Assembly: GCA_022641835.1 (NCBI GenBank)
Contig: CP048728.1
Coordinates: 1 to 51,647, forward strand
Source of the DNA: Petasospora fabianii
Lineage: Eukaryota; Ascomycota; Saccharomycetes; Phaffomycetales; Wickerhamomycetaceae
DNA: 51,647 nt
Direction: 5' to 3'
Positions 3,601-40,791 of this stretch are shown piece by piece (within the stretch, counting starts at the first letter, position 1; each line of letters opens with the position of its first letter). The notes under the pieces are model-generated. The model worked only from the letters and a program-made list of their open reading frames with translations. It was not told where the DNA came from and did no database searches. The position numbers were made by a program, and so were the translations under genes.

Positions 3601-6600
3601 TTTTGAATTTGTTTTAACATTTTTTCATCTTCTATACCTACTGTTATTTCACAATTAGTATATTTTTTTTTTGTTATTCCAAATGTACCATCTCCGTCTA
3701 TTAAACCTGCTAATCATTCATTAAATTTATTATTATTATAATCATTATTATCATAATTATTATTATCATAATTATTATTATTATTATTATTTAAAGTTGA
3801 AATTGTACGATTATTTATATATTTATGTATGCGTGTAGTCTCTGAGATTCCTACTCATAATAAAAAGTATATTATTATTATTTTGGTTATCTGCTGATTA
3901 TATTTATTATAATAATATTTTACTAAATAGGGATTCGCATAAAATAAAAATAATAATAAATTATTTATATTTAAATCACTTATAATATTAGTTTTATTAT
4001 AATTAAAAAAATATTTCCAGCATATAGCATATGTTATTATTAAATATATTGTACATATATTTAATATAGGCCACTCCTTTTGACCTAATGTGTTAGGTGA
4101 GAAGAATACAAATAAACAGAAGATTAATAAGAATAAGAATACTGTTACTAAATCTTTAAATACAAAGTATCCATGGAATGGTAATCTATCTATATTATTA
4201 CTAATACCTAAAGGGTTTGTTGATCCATGTACATGAATTGCCATTAAGTGCATTACAACTAATGCAGCTAAAATAAATGGACATAAGTAATGTAATGCAA
4301 AGAATCTTTGAATTGTAGGGTTACTTACACTAAATGATCCTCAGATAAATGTTACTAAATCTTTTCCAATAAATGGAATAGCTGAGAATAAGTTAGTAAT
4401 AACTGTAGCCAATAACTAATAATATATATTATTCAGATAATAATCTATCTAATAAATAACTTTCTTTAATTATTTATTTGTTAATATAATATATACCCTG
4501 TACTTATTATATGATATGATCATTTGTTATTTTATATATAATATATATATATATATATATAAATTAATAAGCCTTGTGTATTATATATAAAGTATATATA
4601 ATAATTAGTTTCGAATGAACATTAAGCATCATTTCAGACACCTACCATTGAACCATTCTGTCGGGATAATATAATTTACCCACGGTCTTGTTATTTAACA
4701 TATAATTTTGACCTGTTTTCAATGATATCGCATTATATTATATATTATTAATAATAATTATTAATAATAAACATTTATTTTAATTATATATTGCTAAATG
4801 TTTATAAATATAATACTATATATTATTATTATTTATAATGTGATTTTATATAACATAGATTTAACTATATATGGAGATACAATATTATAAAGAAGTTTCA
4901 TAGATTCTTGTTTAATATAAATATTATATTGATTAGGTGGACCAGCTGAAACAACAGATGTTATTAAATTATATTTTTTAGTTAATAAATTAGATAAATA
5001 AATACAATCTTCATATCTAAATGAATTAGTAGCTAATTTTAATCCTTTAGATACTCTACCTCCATCATCTTGGATTCAAATAGCTAAAGCTAATGGTGTT
5101 AAATTATTACTAACTCAATCTTTAGGTATAATTTTTATATTATTAATATATCATAAACTATAAATATCATTAAATATATTATAAGTTCAAGTTGCAAAAC
5201 GAATAATATATTTTGTTTTACCTTTTTTACCTAATCTTGTTTTAATTTTAGGTTTTGTTGTATTACAATAACCTAAACTAGCTACTAAATAATGTAAATA
5301 TAATAAATATTCAGAATGAATTGATTCTTGATAAAAAATTATACGAGTTCCTTTTCCTCCTGAACGTTTTTCAGCATGTCCATCTCCTAATAATGAACCA
5401 CAAATAATACTTTTTATAGTATTACTTAAAGGTTTATTAAAATTTGTTACTTCTTTACGTTTTGTTATTTCCTTATCAAATTTATTTGAATTATAAAAAT
5501 CACTTAATAATTTATAACTTATTATTAATAATAAGTTAATATTTATTATTAATAATAATAATACATTTGAGGCACTAAGTTTACCTCAATGTGACATTTG
5601 TCCATATACACAACAATACAAATTAAATATTAAATATATTTAAATATTTCGACTGTGCATTAAGCATCATTTCAGATACCTACCAGTGGACCAGTCTGTC
5701 GCGATTTATTATTAAACCGACGATCTTATATTATATTATATTAAGTAATATAATACTTTAATCGTTTTCACTAGTATCGCCTAATATATTATATTATATA
5801 TAATATACTAAAGTTTTATGTTTAACTTTAACTTTACATATCTTTCCTAATAATAGTTAACAGAATATGTAGATAATAAAATATATTATTACCATAGTAG
5901 ACTATCTTTAATAAATAATATAATATTAAATATATCTTGTAACTTCATATTTAACTAAATTATTTTTATATACTAAACCTGATTTATAATTTAATGTTTT
6001 CAAATTAATATCATTATCTTTAACATTATTATATTTTAATATTAAATCATTATTTAAATAATTAATATAATTAATAGGTATATATATATATCCTAATTTT
6101 ATAGCTCTTCTTATTGTACGTTCACTACAACAAATATAATTACACATTTTATTTATATTTTTAAATTCACATATTATATTATTATTTAATTTAAGATATA
6201 TAGTTTTACTATATATATCTGATCTTAATAATAATTGTTCTTTAGTATTTAAAACTAAATTAGATGATAATTTTTTATTACTTAAATTAATTTTTAATTT
6301 AAACTCTTCTGATCTTTTATTTTTACGATCATGTTGAAATTTAGCTAAAATAGCTTTACGTTCATCTGTATATAAAGCTTTCATTTTATGAAATGTCTCT
6401 TCAGAGTGTTTATAACCAAAATTATTTATAGCTTCTGTTAATATATTAAATTCAGGTTCTAATAAATTTATATATGTTTGTTCTAATTTTAATAATTCTA
6501 TATTATTGTATTTTGTTATTATATCAGGATAATATTCTATTACCCCAAATATAAAATTATTTAATCCATACTTATTAATTGATTTTTTTACTAATTTACT

Positions 6601-7341
6601 ACCATGATTTGAATGTATACAATGATTAGCAAATTTTACATATAATTTATTTGTTATAGCTGAACCTATATATTTATTACCTGTTATTTTATTTATTATA
6701 ATATATATTCCACTTTTATTTTTTACTGTTTTAGTTATATTATCTCTTGTTTCTGACATATGTAAATTATCTCATCAATTTTCAACTTTTATACCTAATT
6801 CATTAAATATATCTTCTGGATTACGCATATCTTGTTTACTTATTGTATGATATTTTCTTTTTATTATCATTATATTATTATTATTTATTTTTTTATATTT
6901 ATATATATTATTTATTAAAGATTTTGGGCTATGTTGTGATGTTTGTTTACCCAGGAAAGCTGTAGCCATAGTAACAATAAAGATTAATACTCCTATTACT
7001 CAAACTAAAACTCTTGGTGATTTATAACTTCCATAATATAAAGCTTTACCTATATGTGCATACATACAAATAAAGAAAAATGACGCACCATTAGCATGAA
7101 TATAACGGATTAAATATCCGTAATTTACATCACGCATAATATGCTCTACTGATGCAAATGCTAAATCAATATGACTTGAATAATGCATTGCTAAGAAGAT
7201 TCCTGAACATATTTGAATTACTAAACATAATCCTAATAATGATCCTAAATTATATCAATAATTAATAGTTGATGGTTGAGGTGAATCAATTAAATAACTA
7301 TTAACTAATGATAAGAAAACTTGAGATTTTCTAATTGCCAT
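644..7341 (-). CDS. cob: Apocytochrome b, five exons
   Basis: Cytochrome b, the membrane core of complex III that carries both b haems and the quinol sites. Exons on the minus strand: 7341-6949, 5618-5583, 4409-4083, 2938-2889 and 1001-644 (393, 36, 327, 50 and 358 nt), total 1164 nt, 387 aa plus stop. Boundaries follow the group I rule (U before each intron, G as last intron base) and join into uninterrupted conserved sequence: [78 protein letters not shown]. The start [20 protein letters not shown] is family-typical. UGA encodes Trp in SHWG and PEWY. All four introns carry ORFs in frame with the upstream exon, so translation of unspliced precursors probably makes the intron proteins. Confidence 0.97.
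1421..2888 (-). CDS. cob intron 4 LAGLIDADG protein
   Basis: ORF of the fourth cob group I intron (intron 2888-1002), in frame with exon 4 through [13 protein letters not shown] and ending at TAA 1421. About 488 codons. Two LAGLIDADG-type motifs, [14 protein letters not shown] and [12 protein letters not shown], each with an acid at the catalytic place, so it could be an active homing endonuclease and/or maturase. The intron core follows the ORF: a P7-like GACATAGTCTGAAC near 1094-1107 and the GCGCTCGTGG and CTTCCTTGCAATT blocks between 1140 and 1350. These core blocks recur in two rnl introns (see findings). Maturase or endonuclease activity is inferred from the family. Confidence 0.85.
3012..4082 (-). 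CDS. cob intron 3 LAGLIDADG protein (bI4/aI4-type)
   Basis: ORF of cob intron 3 (intron 4082-2939), in frame with exon 3 after SPNTLG and ending at TAA 3012. A hydrophobic leader of about 80 residues precedes two standard motifs, [12 protein letters not shown] and [12 protein letters not shown], both with intact Asp residues. The block [20 protein letters not shown] is characteristic of the yeast bI4 maturase and aI4 endonuclease (I-SceII) pair. The cox1 intron 5 product in this genome has the same block, so they are paralogues. The S-element-like GGACTATATCTTC on the plus strand at 2957-2969 marks the 3' core. Likely acts in cob splicing and possibly DNA cleavage; which of the two is not decided by the sequence. 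Confidence 0.88.
4833..5582 (-). CDS. cob intron 2 LAGLIDADG protein (LAGLIDADG_2-like)
   Basis: ORF of cob intron 2 (intron 5582-4410), continuous with the 12-codon exon 2 and reading through a hydrophobic leader to [20 protein letters not shown], then LALAIWIQDDGG, and ending at TAA 4833. This order of motifs (SLLGDGHA with K/R-rich stretch, then W-x-DDGG) is the pattern of the LAGLIDADG_2 family found in fungal cob introns. Both catalytic Asp positions are kept. The core downstream of the ORF (4600-4740) resembles that of cob intron 1. Endonuclease/maturase role inferred. Confidence 0.85.
5926..6948 (-). CDS. cob intron 1 GIY-YIG endonuclease
   Basis: ORF of cob intron 1 (intron 6948-5619), in frame with exon 1 after ATAFLG and ending at 5926; two consecutive UGA Trp codons (VENWWDN) lie just before MSETRDN. 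The GIY-YIG domain is clear: [19 protein letters not shown], followed by the usual KSINKYG and FGVIEYY elements and [15 protein letters not shown] with the catalytic Glu. A C-terminal NUMOD1-like region ([32 protein letters not shown]) would bind DNA. It is the only GIY-YIG ORF in this genome. The intron core behind the ORF (5640-5800) resembles that of cob intron 2, whose ORF is of the other family. Confidence 0.9.
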
Positions 7342-7611
7342 TGTTAATATATAATTTTTTATTATTATAATCTTAATTTTTATAATTAATTTTTATAATA
7401 ATTATAATTAATTTAAATTACTTTTTTTATATTTATTTATTTTTAATAAATATCTTTACATTAATAAAATTAGTTAATATATATATATATATTATATATA
7501 TATATATCATTGTTATAATATTATATATAATAATAATATATTATTATTATATATTTAAATATTTTTATATAAATATAATTTAATTATAGATTCAATATAT
7601 TAAAAATAAAA

Positions 7612-8247: not shown

Positions 8248-9385
8248 TTAAATTGTATTTAATTTAATAGAAATACCATAAGATCCAGTTTTATTTTTAT
8301 TAACTTTAGTTAATTTAGAGATAGAATGGTTAGCAGGGATATTATTTAATTTATATTTTTTATTAATATTAATATCAAAATTAATAAATTTTTTAAAGTT
8401 ATTAGAATTATTAGAAACTAATAATCCACTATATTTTTTATATAATTTATTAGATAATGAACCTAATAATAATTTTTCTTTAATAGAACGAGATACACCA
8501 GCTTTTTTAAGATTTTTACCTTTATATAATATACTTAAACCTATAAGATATTTATTTATTAATAATTCATTAGTTATTTTATTAATATTTAATGTATTAT
8601 ATATATCTTTAATATTAATATCATTTGTATTATTATTAATTATATTATTATATTTAATATTATTATTATTAATTAAATTTAATACATAATTATTCTTAAT
8701 ATTTAATGAATTATTAGTAGGTATATTATCTCTTAATAATTTACTTAAATGTTTACCTGATAATCCTGCTTTAAATTTATCATTTGTACCTAATATATGT
8801 GTTATACTTTTATTAAATATTGTATTATCATTATAATTATATTTAATCTTATTTGGTATTATTATTACTTTTTATTATAAATTTTACTTAAATATGTTGC
8901 TATATTTTCATTAAATAATATTGTATTATTATTATTATTTAAACATCTAATATACTATATATATCTTTAATTAATGTATTATAATATAATTTATGTTTAT
9001 CATCAATGTTTTTAGATAATATATTATTAGTATCATTATAATTAAAATTAATTGTTACTGTATTTATTGTATGTTTAAATGTTGGTTTATTTATAAATAT
9101 ACGTCTATTAATATTTTTTTATTAATATTTATATTCATTTCTTTAATTATGAATAATTTTATTAATAATTTACTTACTAAACGATCTATTAATAATGTAT
9201 TTATAATATCTTTCTTATTAAATTTATATAATTGATTATTTCAACTATTCATCATATTACTACTTTGTAATTTTGTTCCTTTATTATTATATTCTTGTAA
9301 ATATTTCTTTAAATATCTTAAATTATTATTATTCTTATTATTTAAATAATTATTTGATAATTTATATAAATATGATTTTTAACAT
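8248..9385 (-). CDS. rps3: Mitochondrial small-subunit ribosomal protein S3/Var1, frame interrupted
   Basis: Asn/Lys/Ile-rich protein of the small mitoribosomal subunit. Segments match Saccharomyces Var1 in order: MMNSWNNQLYKFNKK (Var1 has MNNWNTQIYNYNK), NELLINKYLIGLSILYKGK (Var1 DILMYKYLVGWSIKFKGR), YKLNNIPANHSISK, and the ending KTGSYGISIKLNTI before TAA at 8248. The likely start is the ATG at 9385, 46 nt behind an ATATAAGTA promoter. As given, the frame changes four times, near 9378, 9117, 8940 and 8871, each time in an A/T run and each time as if one base were missing. Undercalled homopolymers are the simplest cause; decay or frameshifting remain possible. Identity is good, integrity uncertain. 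Confidence 0.85.
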
Positions 9386-18452: not shown

Positions 18453-32525
<14,073 letters not shown>

Positions 32526-33265
32526 TGTTTTATTGTTTATTATTGTTCCTATTAATTAATTATACATATATATAATATCTTAATATTTATATATATATTT
32601 AGATATATTTTATGTATATTTTAATATAATTTATCTTATTAATAGGTAGTTATATAATTTTTATTATATATTTTTATATATTTATATTTATAAATTTAAT
32701 AATATTAAATATAATATTATTTTTATAAATATAAATTTTTATAAATTAAATATTATTTATTAATATTTAATTACATTATATTATTTTTATATTATATTAT
32801 AAATAATATAATATAATTAATATTTCATTCATTACATTATTAAATAATGAATCATATATATTTATATTATTTCTATTATAGTATGATATATAATATAATA
32901 TATATCATTTTAAATTTTATAAATACATAATATAATAATATTATATTAATCATATTTATATTTTTTATTTATATGTTATAAATAAATATTTATTAGCATA
33001 TATATTATACATATATCTATATATATATATTTAATATATATATAATTGATATGTATAATATAATTATATTTTTTATAGAATAATTAATTAATTAATTTAA
33101 TTAATTAATAGTAATACTTTATTATTCTTTCTTATATAATAATAATTTTTATAATTATTATAGATTATTTAATTATATAATATTATGTTATATAATATGA
33201 TATATTATAAAATATCATTAAATCTAGTATAAATAGTATTATAATACTACATATAAATATATAAG
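32526..33265. other. Spacer ahead of cox1
   Basis: 740 nt of almost pure A/T between tRNA-Cys and cox1. I see no gene and no exact promoter; a one-mismatch ATATAAGTG lies further up, at 33472-33480. The region is presumably the cox1 5' leader. Confidence 0.8.
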
Positions 33266-34177: not shown

Positions 34178-35278
34178 TTAATTTTTTAATTTATTTAATT
34201 TTCATTCTTCAAATGTTAAATTTTGAGAATTAGTTGTTGTATTATATAATAATAATAATATTTTATTATTTGTTATTGGATTATTTTTATCATTAATTAA
34301 TTTATATATTTCAATAAAATTATAAAATTTATATAATTTTATTTTTAAACTATCTAAATTATTTAAATCAATATTTTCCATATTTTCTATACCTAACATT
34401 TTAGGTATTATAATATTATAAATATCATTTATATTAGTATTAATATAACTTATTGATCTTTCAATTTTATGATATTTTACTATACCTTTATTATTAAAAT
34501 AATTTAATAATTCCATTAATATTTTATCATTATAACTATCTTGAATTATTTTAAATGTTACATCTAAACTATTTTTATTTTTATTTTTTATTAAACGTAT
34601 ATTTAGACTTCCATCTCCATCAAATAATCCACATATAAATTCCTTTGTTAAAGGTTGAGTATTATTTGGTATACGTTCATGTTCATTTGTAAATAATTCA
34701 TTTAATGTTAATTTACTTAATTCTGAACTATATTTATTTATATAATAATAATAATCAAAATTTGATATTGTTTTTTTATTTATTATTATATCTTGTTCAT
34801 CTTTAGTTAAATGACGTAATTGTTTTGTTAATGGAACCATTGGATTAATATTTGTAGATAACATCATACAAAATAATCATAAATTTGATTTATATATTAT
34901 TTTTTCATTTATTAAAATATTTACTAATAATTTAAATTTTAAATATGAAAAATATCTATTACCTCTTACTTGATATTTATCAAAAAATGGTAATACTACA
35001 TTTACAATATCTTTTAGATTTGTTATTGTATAACTTGCTATTTTATTATTAGCTTTTTTTATACTTCCTAAATTATTTAATCTTTTTTTTATCTCTTCTA
35101 ATATATAAATATTATCTTTATGTTGCTTTACTATAAATCTTGGATTTATATAAAGTTTATTTTTACCTTTAATTATACTATTTGTAAATGTTCCATCTGC
35201 ATGTACAAATCCTGATATATAATTATTGTTTAATTTGTTTTTATTTTTATGTATATCTTTTTTTGTCATTTTTGTCAT
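34178..35278 (-). CDS. rnl intron 4 LAGLIDADG protein, free-standing ORF
   Basis: ORF inside the last rnl intron (35623-34105). Starts MTKMTKKDIHKNKNKLNN and ends KLNKLKN at 34178, reading one internal UGA as Trp (KSNLWLFCMM). Motifs YISGFVHADGTFTNSI and FICGLFDGDGSLNIRL, both intact, so probably a homing endonuclease. Because rnl is not translated, this ORF needs its own start; an ATATAAGTA site 50 nt upstream and a leader block shared with atp6 could provide it. Confidence 0.87.
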
Positions 35279-35322
35279 TATTTTTATATATTTAATATAA
35301 ATAAATATATTATTTATTTATA

Positions 35323-35357
35323 TTTAATACTTATATTTACTTATTTATTATTCAATA
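35323..35357. repeat. 35-nt direct repeat, copy B
   Basis: Identical over 35 nt to the atp6 leader block at 17694-17728. Here it lies inside rnl intron 4, 45-80 nt ahead of the LAGLIDADG start. Confidence 0.85.
35328..35336 (-). promoter_or_regulatory. ATATAAGTA site inside rnl intron 4
   Basis: Exact nonanucleotide 50 nt ahead of the intron ORF. It could drive the intron protein on its own, or be only a copied atp6 leader. Confidence 0.4.
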
Positions 35358-35804
35358 CTTATTGAATATTTATTAAAAAATTAATTAATTAAAAAAATAT
35401 TTAATTAAATGTTGATTTAATTATATATAACTCTTGTCGTTATATATCCAATATATATTTTTTTATATATTGAGTCGTTACGGGCCTAATCAAATATATA
35501 ATATATTATATATTTATTAACTCCCACGGTATTAGCATGTTATATATTATATATATAATTTAGCCTTCACCGTTTTCAATCAATTATCGATTTCTCTCAC
35601 AAGAAAAAGGGGCAATATTGATTACCCAACTCACGTAACCTTTTAATTGACGAACAGTCAAACCCTTACTAGCTGCTACAACCAGTAGGATAGGTCGAGT
35701 CGACCAAAACTCTTATTTATTGTTAACGTAATAACATTTAATTATTACTTCAATATATTACTATATTGTTCAGACTATGTCATAAATTACAATTATTTTT
35801 TTTT

Positions 35805-36404
35805 TTAATATGAAACTTTATATAAGAATTCTGACAAAATATGAGGACGAATACTATTAATAATAAAATTTCTATCTTTATAAGGTATATTTATCATAGA
35901 GTACATTTTATTATTACCATATGATTTTGTTAAATAAGTATGTAAACCATATTTTTTATTTAAAAATTCAGAAATAGTTGTATTAACATCTATCCCAAAA
36001 CTTTCAGTATGCAATACTAATCTATTATCACGTTTATTCATTGATCCATCTCCCATAATTCAATAAGCTAGTACCACTTCATCTATTTGTTGAAGTACTT
36101 CTAAAGTTATTGTTTTTTTACCATTTATATAAAATATATTATATAAATCTAAAAAGGTAGGATGAGAATAAGTTTTAAAATAAAAACTTTTTATTGTTTT
36201 ATCTTTATTAAATCTTACTCCAATATCATGTAAAAATGTATATTGTTTGAATATATAAAATAAATGATAAATAAAAAAATATTGTTCTTTTGATTGCTCA
36301 AATTTAACATAAGCATATTTACCATGTAATGCTATAGTAGCATCACTAATTATCATACCTATAAGTGCTGATTTTAATCATCCACTTACATTTGGTTGCT
36401 TCAT
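35805..36404 (-). CDS. rnl intron 3 LAGLIDADG endonuclease, I-SceI-like layout
   Basis: ORF inside the rnl intron at CACCTCGAT/GTCGAC (intron 36739-35705). 199 codons starting MKQPNVSGWLKSALIG. First motif LIGMIISDATIALHGK, second LAYWIMGDGSMNKRDN, followed by LVLHTESFG and IRPHILSEFLYKV. The order and spacing (ISDA...; INGKKTI; YW-x-x-DG; LxTxSF; hydrophobic end) follow the I-SceI family of yeast omega introns (LILGDAYI; NNKKTIP; YWFMDDGG; LNTQSF). Both Asp positions kept. Confidence 0.84.
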
Positions 36405-36794
36405 CTTTCATTCTTGTCATACTTTTGTATTATAATTAATTTTTTTTTTTTGCATTGTTTGTTATATGTTTTTTACTTTTCACATATATATATATATATG
36501 TCATCTTATCTTATATTTTTTTTCATTATTATTAATTGTAATTTTTGGGCGCTCGTGGAAGAATTATTGTTGATCTTACTCATCTTCTAGTCGTTGAACG
36601 TTTTTATAACTTTATATAGAATATATAAATTGATCGTTATAAACTTCGCTGCAAGTTGTCCATATATTATTTATGGATTTTCTTGCAATTCACCCAATTT
36701 AACCTCGACATCGATTTGTGAGTAGTAAATTATTATTTTATCGAGGTGGCAAACACAACTTACTATTTGTACTATTTCGTTGTATTACCCTGTT

Positions 36795-37151
36795 CAATTT
36801 TGTTATCACAATAATGTTTATTTATTGTTTCAATAATTTCCATATTATTTAATTAAATTAATAATATTTTATATATTGTTCAGACTATGTCATTATTTAT
36901 ATAAATGTTGTATTTATACAAATATCGGGCGCTCGTGGAGAAGTTATTGTTGTCGATACTCATTCTCTAGTCGTTGAACGTTTACATTACTAATATTATA
37001 TATATTCGACGTAATGCACTTCGCTGCAAATTATCCATATATATATTATATATATATTATATATGGACTTCCTTGCAATTCACCCGATTTACTCAATAAT
37101 TATATTATTATTGATAATTATATTTTTCAATATAATGGGACTTGATAATTA
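36795..37151 (-). other. rnl intron 2: group I intron at the omega site, without ORF
   Basis: 357-nt intron between GCTAGGGAT and AACAGGGTAATA, exactly where the Saccharomyces omega intron with I-SceI sits. Starts TAATTATC, ends CAAAATTG (terminal G). Core blocks: GGGTGAATTGCAAGGAAGTCC (its plus-strand form at 37069-37090), GCAGCGAAGTGCAT, GTTCAACGACTAG, CCACGAGCGCCC, GACATAGTCTGAAC. No reading frame. Core blocks recur in rnl intron 3 and cob intron 4. Confidence 0.85.
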
Positions 37152-37832
37152 ATCCCTAGCGTAACTTTTATCCGTTATCTTTACCTATAACTATATATAG
37201 TAAATGTTCATTATACCATACTTACGTATTTACTCCATTTGTTTATGTTGTAATTTATGCATAGTTATACTATTATATTTTTTAAATCTTTTTAGATTAA
37301 TTGTTTTCATGACAATTTAACTATACCTTCTTTATTCTATTATTTATGCAATTAACATAATTATATTTTATTATAATTATATTAAATTGTATATATATAT
37401 TTATAATTATTAATTAATTATTATTATAATATTTTTATAATTTATCATTACTAATATAAAGGACTTACTCAGTTTATTTATGTGAGAATGACGCCCCATC
37501 AAAACTATCTAACAGAGACTTTCTCTATCTTCATTATTATTAATATTAATAATAATGGTATTATATAGTTATTATAACATTATATAATGTATAGATAAGT
37601 TAAATATCTATAAATAAGAAGCTTCTCAATTTTACACCTAATATGCTACTTCATAAACTGAATATTTATAAATATTTAACAGTCTATCTATCAATAGTAA
37701 AGCTGCATAGGGTCTTTCCGTCTTACTGTGTTTTAGCAGTATCTTCACTGCTTATCCAATTTCGCTGGACCTATTCCGGAGACAGTTGTTATATCATTAC
37801 TCCATTCATGCACGACTATAATTATTAGACAA

Positions 37833-38876
37833 GTTGGGATAGGTAGATCTTTACAGATTTTCCCCCCCTAAGAACCGTACATGCGTATCACTACGCATAC
37901 GGCTCAAGCAACTACTTTTCATAATATTTTTTAAAATATTACTACTGTTTTAAATTTATTATCATTTTTATATTAATAAATATTAATATTTATTACTGTT
38001 CATACTACTTATTATAGATAATACTTGATTTATAAATCTTTATCTATACTATGTAGTACTATTGTAAATTATAATTGATGTCTTACACCAACCTATTTTT
38101 AATTTTTTAATATAAATGATCCTTCTGCATCAATTAATACTGTTATAAAATTAGTATTAATTAAATTAGAATTTAAATTATCAAACTCCTTTTTTAACAT
38201 TTATTATTATTATTTATTTTACTTTTCATATATATATATATATATGTAATATTATATATAATAATAATATTAATAAAAAAGGCTCATCACCAAGTAGAAG
38301 TCAGCAATTCTTTAGAATTGTCCATTAGGATCTATATTATTCATTACAAATAATCATTCGCTTTTTCTACTATCCTTTACCCTCTAATCATATTTTTTAT
38401 TTATAATTTATTAAAAATATCCATCCATATAATGGTTGGTATAAATAAATATAATATATTTATATATTGCAATAAATATATTTTATATATTTATAGATTG
38501 TAGGGTTTACCCTGTTACATAATAAATATTTTACAATAATACAAGATAGCTGACTTTGTTCCCATGATAAATAACGATTACATCTTTATAGTCTAGATAC
38601 CTTCAACTATTAATCTTTATCATTAAATAAGTGTAGCTTAGGAAACTTTATACCATCAGTTCACTTTCATTCTTCTTGTATTATCTTAATCTCAGCTCCT
38701 TAATATACTTAATAATATTAAGGCTACTTTTTTCTCTACAACTTAGAACATTAAATTACTTTAATGCACCTGTAGATAGATTTTATATTAGATGCACTAT
38801 AACTTTACCTTTTAATTATATTATTTATTTATAATTAAACATTCAAGAATACTTATTATATCTTTGCAGGTCGTAC
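37833..38876 (-). other. rnl intron 1: group II intron
   Basis: 1044-nt intron between GTAGCGAAATACC and TTGTCTAATAATTAT. Begins GTACGACC (consensus GUGYG) and ends CCCAAC (consensus AY). Domain V is complete at 37872-37905: 34 nt, outer helix GAGCCGTA/TACGGTTC with the AGC triad, 2-nt bulge TG, apical helix TGCGTA/TACGCA closed by a GTGA tetraloop. A G-rich domain VI follows. GGTATA near 38655 could be EBS1 against exon AATACC, a tentative match. The only group II intron seen here; it carries a LAGLIDADG scrap instead of a reverse transcriptase. Confidence 0.87.
38099..38200 (-). pseudogene. LAGLIDADG remnant in the group II intron
   Basis: 33-codon frame MLKKEFDNLNSNLINTNFIT followed by VLIDAEGSFILKN and TAA. 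The VLIDAEGSF stretch is a clear second-half LAGLIDADG motif. The usual length is 250-400 residues, so this is a leftover of an invading homing endonuclease in domain IV. No reverse transcriptase trace found. Confidence 0.65.
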
Positions 38877-40791
38877 GGTATTTCGCTACATTATAACCCT
38901 CAGAATAAGGCTGCTATTTGATTAAATATTTATATAAAATCTTTTACAATTTCATATTTTATCCTTTAACCATGGAGCAGAATTCAGACACTATACTAAT
39001 ACTTTTGTATCCGCAGTGTCCTGTGTTTTTAGTAAACAGTTGTATAACCTTATTTTTTTTATCCCTTTGTTGGCGAACGTGGGGGTGCTTTTTGCCGAGT
39101 TCCTTCGGAATAGTTTATCCATTCACTTTCATATTCTCTACTATACACACCTGTGTCGGTCTTAATTACGGTTTTAAACAATTATTTCTTTCTTGTACAT
39201 ATTTTAATACCTATAACTTTTTTATTTTATATGAAATATGCCCATATTAATTTATTAAAAAATTAATATATATAAATGTTATTTAAACCTATCGCATATA
39301 TTATAACTATATACTAGCTTAAGGACCGAATTTATAGTAAAACCATATGTATTATGTGAATAAGTTTAGATAATTGTATTAAACAATTAAACTTATTTTT
39401 CGCTACTCATGCCAGCATTCTCTATATAATTAACAATTATAATTATAATTATTTATCATTACATATAATATATATTAATATATATATATTACATTAATTA
39501 TTATTTATAATTATATTATATAGCTTATATTATAGCTATATTTTTATAATAATTTATCTAACTATTATATTATGTTTATTACATGCTCTGTTACCATATT
39601 AATATATTTATTATTTATATATTAATATATAAATTTTCGGTTATGAATTTATATTATTAATAATATTAAGATCCGTGTATTATCTGTATAATATTTCATT
39701 TTTATTTTTAATTAGTGCATTGTTACATGTTCATTATAGGATGGTTATTGTCAAACCCACCAACTAATTGGATTTGAAATATTATACATTATGTTCACTT
39801 AATTCATAATTTGGAACCTTAAATTGTATTTGGGGCTGTTTCCCTCTCGACTATGAACCTTATCGCACATAGTCTGACTAATTGACTTTTGATTATAATA
39901 TTATGAGATTAAATATACATGATAAATCAATAATTGACCCCCATATATAATTATATATATATATATTATATATATATATATAATTAAAAATATTAAGTGC
40001 TATACCTTATAATCATTATTATCAATCGCTATACTAACATATATTTCACAGAGAACCAGCTATCTATAAAACAGGTTAGTCTTTCACTTACTTATCATTA
40101 CTAATTGGATAATACTGCAACATTAACCCATTCGATCAATAAATCAATTATTAATTTTATAATATAATTAATTATATTATAAAATTATTTGATTATATAT
40201 CTTGTAATAATAAGATCTTTTATTTTCGGGCCAATTAATAATAACTTATTAACATTTTTCAAATATAATATTATATTATATTTATTAAATATTTTATTTA
40301 TATATAGTATTTTATACTTTGCTATTATTAATTACTTGCTGGCCCATTATGCAAAAGGTACGCATTAAATTAATTTTAATCTCATGCTGCTTATAAATTA
40401 TCCATTTCATATTTTCCTTTTCAGTACTTTTTATGCTTATTAATAATATTTAGCCTTGGATTTAGTTAATCCTTATTCAATCAGTTTTACCCAATTTACT
40501 TACTTTTTTTGGCTTTATTACTTTCACTCGCCGTTACTTATAATATCTCGTTTGATTTCTTTTCCTATGAATACTTAGATGATTCAGTTCTTCACGTTTA
40601 TTAATCTTTGGTTTCCCTTAGGTTTTAAGTAACTTTAATTACTATTAGTAACCTTCTTTATTAATAGCAATATACTCCTTGAATAACTCGTTTATGCATT
40701 ATAACACTTTTCAAATCTTTAACATATTTTTATTTATTTTCTTATTAATTATTATTTTTTTTTTATTTTAATAATTATAATTACTTATATT

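What the first reader, a model, noticed from the sequence alone, without database searches (positions are those of the whole stretch)
37833..38876. Group II intron in rnl carrying a LAGLIDADG remnant
Domain V is complete (34 nt, GTGA tetraloop, 2-nt bulge, AGC triad), yet the only coding trace inside is a 33-codon scrap with VLIDAEGSF (38099-38200). Group II introns normally carry reverse transcriptases; LAGLIDADG ORFs in group II introns are known only in a limited set of fungal rRNA introns. This one seems to have been invaded by a group I-type ORF that then decayed.
Basis: partly seen in the sequence, partly recalled or inferred. Interest (0 to 1): 0.7.

Follow-up and report, generated by a model that had tools for sequence, protein, structure and literature searches.

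The report
Group II intron with dead endonuclease
A yeast-type mitochondrial ribosomal RNA gene carries a group II intron that looks structurally intact and holds the broken remains of a DNA-cutting homing enzyme; such hybrid introns are already known, but this insertion site is not among those listed in the one recent survey that could be read.

Summary
Window 38876..37833 (minus) is a 1,044-nt group II intron in mitochondrial rnl, inserted after the base equal to E. coli 23S position 1942. The ribozyme looks intact beyond domain V: a domain III model built only from bacterial introns has one hit in the window, at the right place (57.6 bits, E 2.9e-13), and 9 of 14 counted pairs are changed on both sides yet still pair. 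The basal domain I helix sits in the bacterial register. EBS1/EBS2 candidates pair with the 5' exon (chance 3-5%). A local fold gives domain VI a bulged A; the whole-core fold does not. No reverse-transcriptase trace was seen. Best reading: a splicing-competent, now immobile IIB1 intron that once homed by DNA cutting. The kind is known: a 2026 survey counts 753 group II-LHE introns in 13 site families, 274 with degenerate ORFs. Site 1942 is not among them, so it may be a new site family. Splicing and the order of events are inferred.

The parts
37833..38876 (-). Group II intron (IIB1-like) in rnl, 1,044 nt, inserted after E. coli 23S position 1942
   Evidence: Rfam RF00029; bacteria-only domain III model hit; exon match and E. 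coli numbering
38877..38890 (-). End of 5' exon: IBS2 TGTAGC (38890..38885) and IBS1 ATACC (38881..38877)
38516..38876 (-). Domain I (bounds approximate); basal helix 38861..38848 with 38530..38517, 14 bp
   Evidence: same 5-nt spacing to the next motif as 7 of 9 bacterial introns that have the motif; 7 of 2000 shuffles as long
38632..38637 (-). EBS2 candidate GCTACA
   Evidence: 6 Watson-Crick pairs with IBS2; 5.3% of shuffles of nt 186-265 as good, 11% for nt 101-340
38597..38601 (-). EBS1 candidate GGTAT in a hairpin loop
   Evidence: 5 Watson-Crick pairs with IBS1 ending at -1; 3.4% of shuffles of the loop as good; similar hairpins read by eye in bacterial introns
38291..38378 (-). Domain III
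   Evidence: bacteria-only covariance model, 57.6 bits, E 2.9e-13, only hit in window; 14 of 14 counted pairs standard in the window, 9 changed on both sides
37908..38290 (-). Domain IV, carrying the decayed ORF; TT linker to DV at 37907..37906
   Evidence: position between DIII and DV
37940..38200 (-). Decayed LAGLIDADG endonuclease ORF, one domain recognisable, 7 in-frame stops
37872..37905 (-). Domain V, 34 nt
37833..37871 (-). Domain VI; bulged branch-point A at 37840 (intron nt 1037, 8th from the 3' end) in the local fold; 3' end AC
   Evidence: the whole-core fold does not show the bulge
37816..37832 (-). Start of 3' exon TTGTC.. (rnl continues)

Best explanation
A group IIB1 self-splicing intron in mitochondrial rnl whose own mobility gene is dead. 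Inferred life history: the RNA pairs with the 5' exon through EBS1 and EBS2, splices by a lariat from the bulged A of domain VI, and so is silent in the mature rRNA. It once carried, in domain IV, an I-OnuI-type LAGLIDADG endonuclease instead of a reverse transcriptase. That enzyme would have cut intron-less rnl copies at the insertion site so that repair copied the intron in. After the intron was fixed the ORF gathered stop codons and lost one of its two domains, while the ribozyme was kept because rnl needs it to splice. Shown: ribozyme parts, the site, the relic and its family. Inferred: splicing, past homing at this site, loss of a second domain, and selection on the ribozyme.
For: DV/DVI at Rfam gathering level. 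Domain III found by a model built without the window, with covariation in two helices: 96.8% of 126 cells paired, 10 of 14 pairs with double changes, 0 of 500 shuffles for both measures; in the window itself 14 of 14 pairs are standard and 9 are changed on both sides against the commonest bacterial pair. Basal domain I helix in the bacterial register. Bulged A in the local fold. EBS1 and EBS2 pairings. Exons join to the 23S sequence at 1942. Relic: Pfam LAGLIDADG_1 E 4.7e-4; all 41 PDB sequences listed up to E 10 bear names of homing endonucleases or I-OnuI-type variants (aHE31 and aHE15 taken as such by name only), likewise all 39; hand-reversed control 0 hits; 0 of 1,000 shuffles. No RT domain in the three forward frames of domain IV, while 3 of 3 bacterial introns checked (L011, L024, L031) have RT and maturase domains there.
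Against: The intron starts GTACG, one base off GUGYG. The minimum-energy fold of the whole core (intron 1-640 joined to 951-1044) keeps DV but not the canonical DVI with its bulged A, which only the local fold gives. EBS chance levels are modest (3.4%, 5.3%; 11% for EBS2 over a wider stretch), and a second GGTAT lies at intron nt 223. Domain II and most of domain I were not tested by comparison. PDB whole-sequence E-values (3qqy 2e-8) add two hits of the same piece to the two halves of I-OnuI; single halves in the five printed alignments, all engineered variants, have i-Evalues 0.0014 to 0.045. The Pfam score is under the curated cut-off and vanishes for the longer frame, so the same scan could also miss a short RT relic. 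No RNA evidence.
Confidence: 0.83

Rival explanations
1. The intron is an ordinary ORF-less group II intron and the LAGLIDADG look is chance in AT-rich sequence.
For: The 33-aa open piece alone gives no LAGLIDADG family; the 128-aa frame gives none in Pfam.
Against: 0 of 1,000 shuffles, six frames each, reach the real score (19.6 against a best shuffle of 8.0 for an I-OnuI N-half piece, 23.1 against 8.6 for a C-half piece). In the PDB only endonuclease names are listed.
Confidence: 0.03
2. The endonuclease came inside a group I intron nested in domain IV (twintron) whose core was then lost.
For: LHEs are mostly group I passengers; complex introns exist in fungal mitogenomes (PMC12308204, passages).
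Against: No group I match in 37600-39100 even at E 10, while two group I matches at gathering level lie elsewhere in this rnl. Domain IV is only 383 nt.
Confidence: 0.06
3. The LHE did not invade here: a composite group II-LHE element arrived complete, by homing from another lineage or by descent, and only decayed in this host. (Compatible with the best explanation; it differs in where the ORF was acquired.)
For: Group II-LHE introns are patchy and mobile (PMC13190283); the relic is not close to the window's own ORFs (best 8.0 bits among 17 ORFs, 15 of them with LAGLIDADG families), so a local donor is unlikely.
Against: Nothing found against it; no related intron could be fetched.
Confidence: 0.5

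Closest known systems
Fungal mitochondrial group IIB1-LHE introns, families rnl-2059, rnl-1787, rns-788, rns-952, rnl-489 (PMC13190283: outline, section 0 part 1 of 8, section 5 parts 1-2 of 3, section 11, section 12 part 1 of 2, section 19, and passages)
   Same: rRNA gene host, IIB1 linker before DV, 34-nt DV, LAGLIDADG instead of RT; ORF in domain IV as in three fungal families; degenerated ORFs common (274 of 753).
   Different: Insertion site 1942 is not among the listed rnl sites, and stretches around the window's own 1787 and 2059 sites are uninterrupted. An EBS2 candidate is present, whereas fewer than one quarter of rnl-2059 and rns-788 members keep EBS2.
I-UmaI intron of Ustilago maydis LSU rRNA (PMC3498182, passages)
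   Same: Group II intron in mitochondrial LSU rRNA encoding a two-motif LAGLIDADG enzyme, shown to cut the intron-less site; of its top homologues only the Lentinula one appears preserved.
   Different: Other insertion site (GACGGGAAGACCCT target, near E. coli 2059); enzyme intact.
I-OnuI family homing endonucleases (PDB 3qqy; that it is the wild-type I-OnuI is recalled)
   Same: One LAGLIDADG domain matches.
   Different: The relic has one recognisable domain, seven stops, no second motif.
Bacterial RT-encoding group II introns (L011, L024, L031 and others)
   Same: Domain III, basal DI helix and DV/DVI architecture; the loci were picked by a DV/DVI pattern, so only DI and DIII are independent likeness.
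   Different: The three checked encode RT and maturase domains, two of them also HNH.

Membership tests
Group II intron | 34-nt domain V with tetraloop and 2-nt bulge | tested here: met
Group II intron | Domain VI with bulged branch-point A | tested here: inconclusive
   A at intron nt 1037 bulged in the local fold, not in the whole-core fold
Group II intron | 3' end AY | tested here: met
   ends AC
Group II intron | 5' end GUGYG | tested here: inconclusive
   GUACG, one deviation; deviating 5' ends are reported (passage of PMC12308204)
Group II intron | Six domains DI-DVI | tested here: inconclusive
   DI basal helix, DIII, DV-DVI met; DII and the rest of DI not tested by comparison
Group II intron | EBS-IBS pairing with the 5' exon | tested here: met
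   EBS1 5 bp, EBS2 6 bp; chance 3.4% and 5.3%, 11% for EBS2 over nt 101-340
Group II intron | Splicing of the transcript | not testable with these tools
   no RNA data
Subclass IIB1 | UU linker between DIV and DV | tested here: met
   TT at 37907..37906; criterion from PMC13190283
Subclass IIB1 | No domain Ia in the 5' strand of I(i)/I(ii) | not tested
   detailed DI model not made
Group II-LHE introns | LAGLIDADG ORF, intact or degenerate, and no RT | tested here: met
   degenerate LHE; no RT in three forward frames, a scan that also missed the LHE in the long frame
Any of the 13 named group II-LHE families | Insertion at the family's site | tested here: not met
   site 1942; rnl sites listed are 489, 1787, 2059, 2080, 2698, the last two in Ulva numbering and 489 in Endoconidiophora numbering; the family of Ulva 2080 was also reported at 1911. 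The non-E. coli numbers were not converted here.
I-OnuI family LHE | LAGLIDADG_1 domain with I-OnuI-like flanks | tested here: met
I-OnuI family LHE | Two LAGLIDADG motifs in one open frame | tested here: not met
   one motif, seven in-frame stops: a pseudogene, not an active enzyme

The most novel reading that the evidence does not exclude
This is a 14th site family of group II-LHE introns, at rnl 1942 in a budding-yeast-type mitochondrion, from a further independent capture of an I-OnuI-type endonuclease by a IIB1 backbone that still resembles bacterial RT-carrying introns, caught after loss of the enzyme.
Probability: 0.4. Interest if true: 0.5.

Novelty: new member of a known kind. Interest (0 to 1): 0.38.

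Why it matters
It may add an rnl site to the list of places where a group II ribozyme lives with a DNA-cutting homing enzyme, and it shows the end state: ribozyme kept, enzyme dead. If relatives carry intact copies, the site would allow a test of whether the enzyme switch from RT to LAGLIDADG happened again in yeasts.

Tried and rejected
Viral contigs: five pattern scans. One search gave 7 loci, none with an Rfam match at gathering level, so taken as chance; the other four gave none. No yeast relative could be fetched. A tblastn of the window's ORFs against the intron was noise; its output was cut and I judged only the part shown. nhmmer of intron 1-600 against 32 bacterial loci gave 14 hits, none under inclusion (best E 0.12); by the coordinates all 14 lie on the DV strand, 1.7-1.9 kb before DV, and that led to the domain III test. 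Frame 0 of the relic (KIGW..) was considered as a frameshifted continuation and dropped: no family. Whether the relic is the N or the C half of the enzyme stays open: the motif letters look like the first, the flanks score like either. One DIV frame gave DUF5831 at E 9.8e-4, 19.8 bits under its cut-off of 25; taken as chance. Species: a search for the window length was useless. PMC3138568, PMC1370344 and PMC2924541 are not held, so the site lists of Li 2011 and Toor 2002 were not checked. An earlier count said 8 of 9 bacterial introns share the domain I register; the recount is 7 of 9 with the same spacing and one more near it. The entry says the RF00029 match is the only one in the genome, which one search supports only for its best candidates.

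Full report
The window is contig C16 (51,647 bases) of a 12.3-Mb, 16-contig assembly. It is a mitochondrial genome: rns and rnl by Rfam, cob and cox1 by Pfam, nad5 by likeness to solved chains, other genes by eye from the translations under code 4. The nad5 product is nearest to PDB chains 9iho, 6gcs and 7zm7; from memory at least the last two are fungal complex I. A weak VAR1 match and the small genome fit a budding yeast. The species is not known.

Observation. The intron is 38876..37833, 1,044 nt, GTACG...CCCAAC. Rfam's group II family matches 37833-37907 with 61.7 bits, its only match at gathering level in the window and the only one found in the assembly, where only the best candidates were scored. 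Domain VI has a bulged A, 8th base from the 3' end, in the local fold of nt 960-1044; the minimum-energy fold of the joined core keeps domain V but not this domain VI. The exons match E. coli 23S, and a 23S of 2,904 bases puts the site after position 1942.

Is the ribozyme intact? A pattern made from the window's domains V and VI gave 32 bacterial loci. Of 17 rows with the domain III motif at the right distance, 4 were duplicates, one (L039) was dropped by eye as not domain III, and 4 with a longer insert were left out. The other 8 made model R1 without the window. R1 has one hit on both strands of the window up to E 10: 38291-38378 minus, 57.6 bits, E 2.9e-13 (rough calibration). On the alignment with the window added, 96.8% of 126 cells pair, 10 of 14 pairs have changes on both sides, and 0 of 500 shuffles reach either value (the tool warns that this is not a probability). 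In the window itself 14 of 14 pairs are standard and 9 differ on both sides from the commonest bacterial pair. The structure was chosen from these sequences, so the percentage paired leans its way; a third helix, badly aligned, was not counted. The basal helix of domain I is 14 bp, starts at nt 16, and its 3' strand ends 5 nt before GGTAAACCC. Of 10 bacterial introns given, L016 lacks the motif, 7 of the other 9 have the same 5-nt spacing (some of them near copies of each other), L024 has 7, and L033 does not fit; 7 of 2,000 shuffles gave a helix as long. EBS1 (GGTAT) and EBS2 (GCTACA) pair with ATACC and TGTAGC of the 5' exon; shuffles reach this in 3.4% and 5.3%, and in 11% for EBS2 if nt 101-340 are allowed. 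Domain II and the rest of domain I were not tested. The TT linker before domain V is the IIB1 criterion of PMC13190283.

The relic. The frame that starts at 38200 runs 33 codons to a stop, but the likeness goes on through stops (7 between residues 22 and 87; codons printed). With X at stops, Pfam gives LAGLIDADG_1 at E 4.7e-4 and 21.4 bits (cut-off 23.1), residues 22-87 (by reference, 21.5 and 20.9 bits for two lengths). The PDB search lists 41 sequences, most named as I-OnuI variants, with 3qqy at 2e-8; with the 30 codons before the ATG added it lists 39, 3qqy at 2.3e-9. These figures add two hits of the same piece to the two halves of the enzyme; single halves in the five alignments printed have i-Evalues from 0.0014 to 0.045. 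A hand-typed reversal finds nothing. In 1,000 dinucleotide shuffles of domain IV, six frames each, none reached the real scores against two I-OnuI fragments. Against: the 33-aa piece alone and the 128-aa frame gave no LAGLIDADG family in Pfam. The window's own ORFs are not close: best 8.0 bits among 17 compared, 15 of which hold a LAGLIDADG family; the GIY-YIG ORF was not compared. The three forward frames of domain IV show no reverse transcriptase, but that scan also missed the relic in the long frame. The three bacterial introns checked (L011, L024, L031) carry RVT and maturase domains there.

Mechanism. Shown are ribozyme parts, exon pairing candidates, the site and the dead ORF. Inferred are splicing by branching, past homing by DNA cutting, loss of the enzyme's other half, and keeping of the ribozyme because rnl needs it. 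Group II-encoded LAGLIDADG enzymes that cut the intron-less site are shown for Ustilago (PMC3498182, passages) and reported for Leptographium in reviews (PMC4424553 and PMC8393795, passages).

What is known. PMC13190283 (outline, section 0 part 1, section 5 parts 1-2, section 11, section 12 part 1, section 19, passages) counts 753 group II-LHE introns in 13 site families in rnl, rns and cox1; 274 have degenerated ORFs. Fungal rnl families are 489, 1787 and 2059. Its supplements were not seen. A search for rnl-1942, rnl-1943, mL1942, mL1943, L1942 and L1943 gave 27 papers, of which the 20 listed are not about introns by title. The words yeast and Saccharomyc do not occur in the main text of PMC13190283. 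Further searches for yeast rnl group II introns listed no title that names this intron; beyond the papers named here I saw only listings or passages, and the older site lists are not held. So the site may be new, and I do not claim that it is absent from print.

Verdict. A real IIB1-like group II intron with a dead I-OnuI-type endonuclease: a new member of a known kind, at a site not on the survey's list. Confidence was lowered from 0.85 to 0.83 on rechecking, because the whole-core fold does not show the domain VI bulge. Interest is moderate.

Noticed in passing
window 36500-37160 and 34178-36461: rnl has two more group I matches (RF00028 at 36862-37141 and 36545-36697): exon ends GCTAGGGAT (37160..37152) and CACCTCGAT (36748..36740) suggest introns at the omega-like site and near E. 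coli 2500 (site name recalled). Their cores look alike by eye; ORFs 35805-36461 (LAGLIDADG_2) and 34178-35317 (LAGLIDADG_1) lie nearby.
   Followed up: partly
window 5926-7392: A cob exon runs in frame into an intron ORF with a GIY-YIG domain.
   Followed up: no
window 18453-32555: cox1 is split by many introns; 11 ORFs with LAGLIDADG families lie in this stretch.
   Followed up: no
window 8248-8871: 207-aa ORF with a weak VAR1 match (E 3.3e-4, 21.2 bits, under the cut-off of 33), a candidate mitochondrial ribosomal protein.
   Followed up: no
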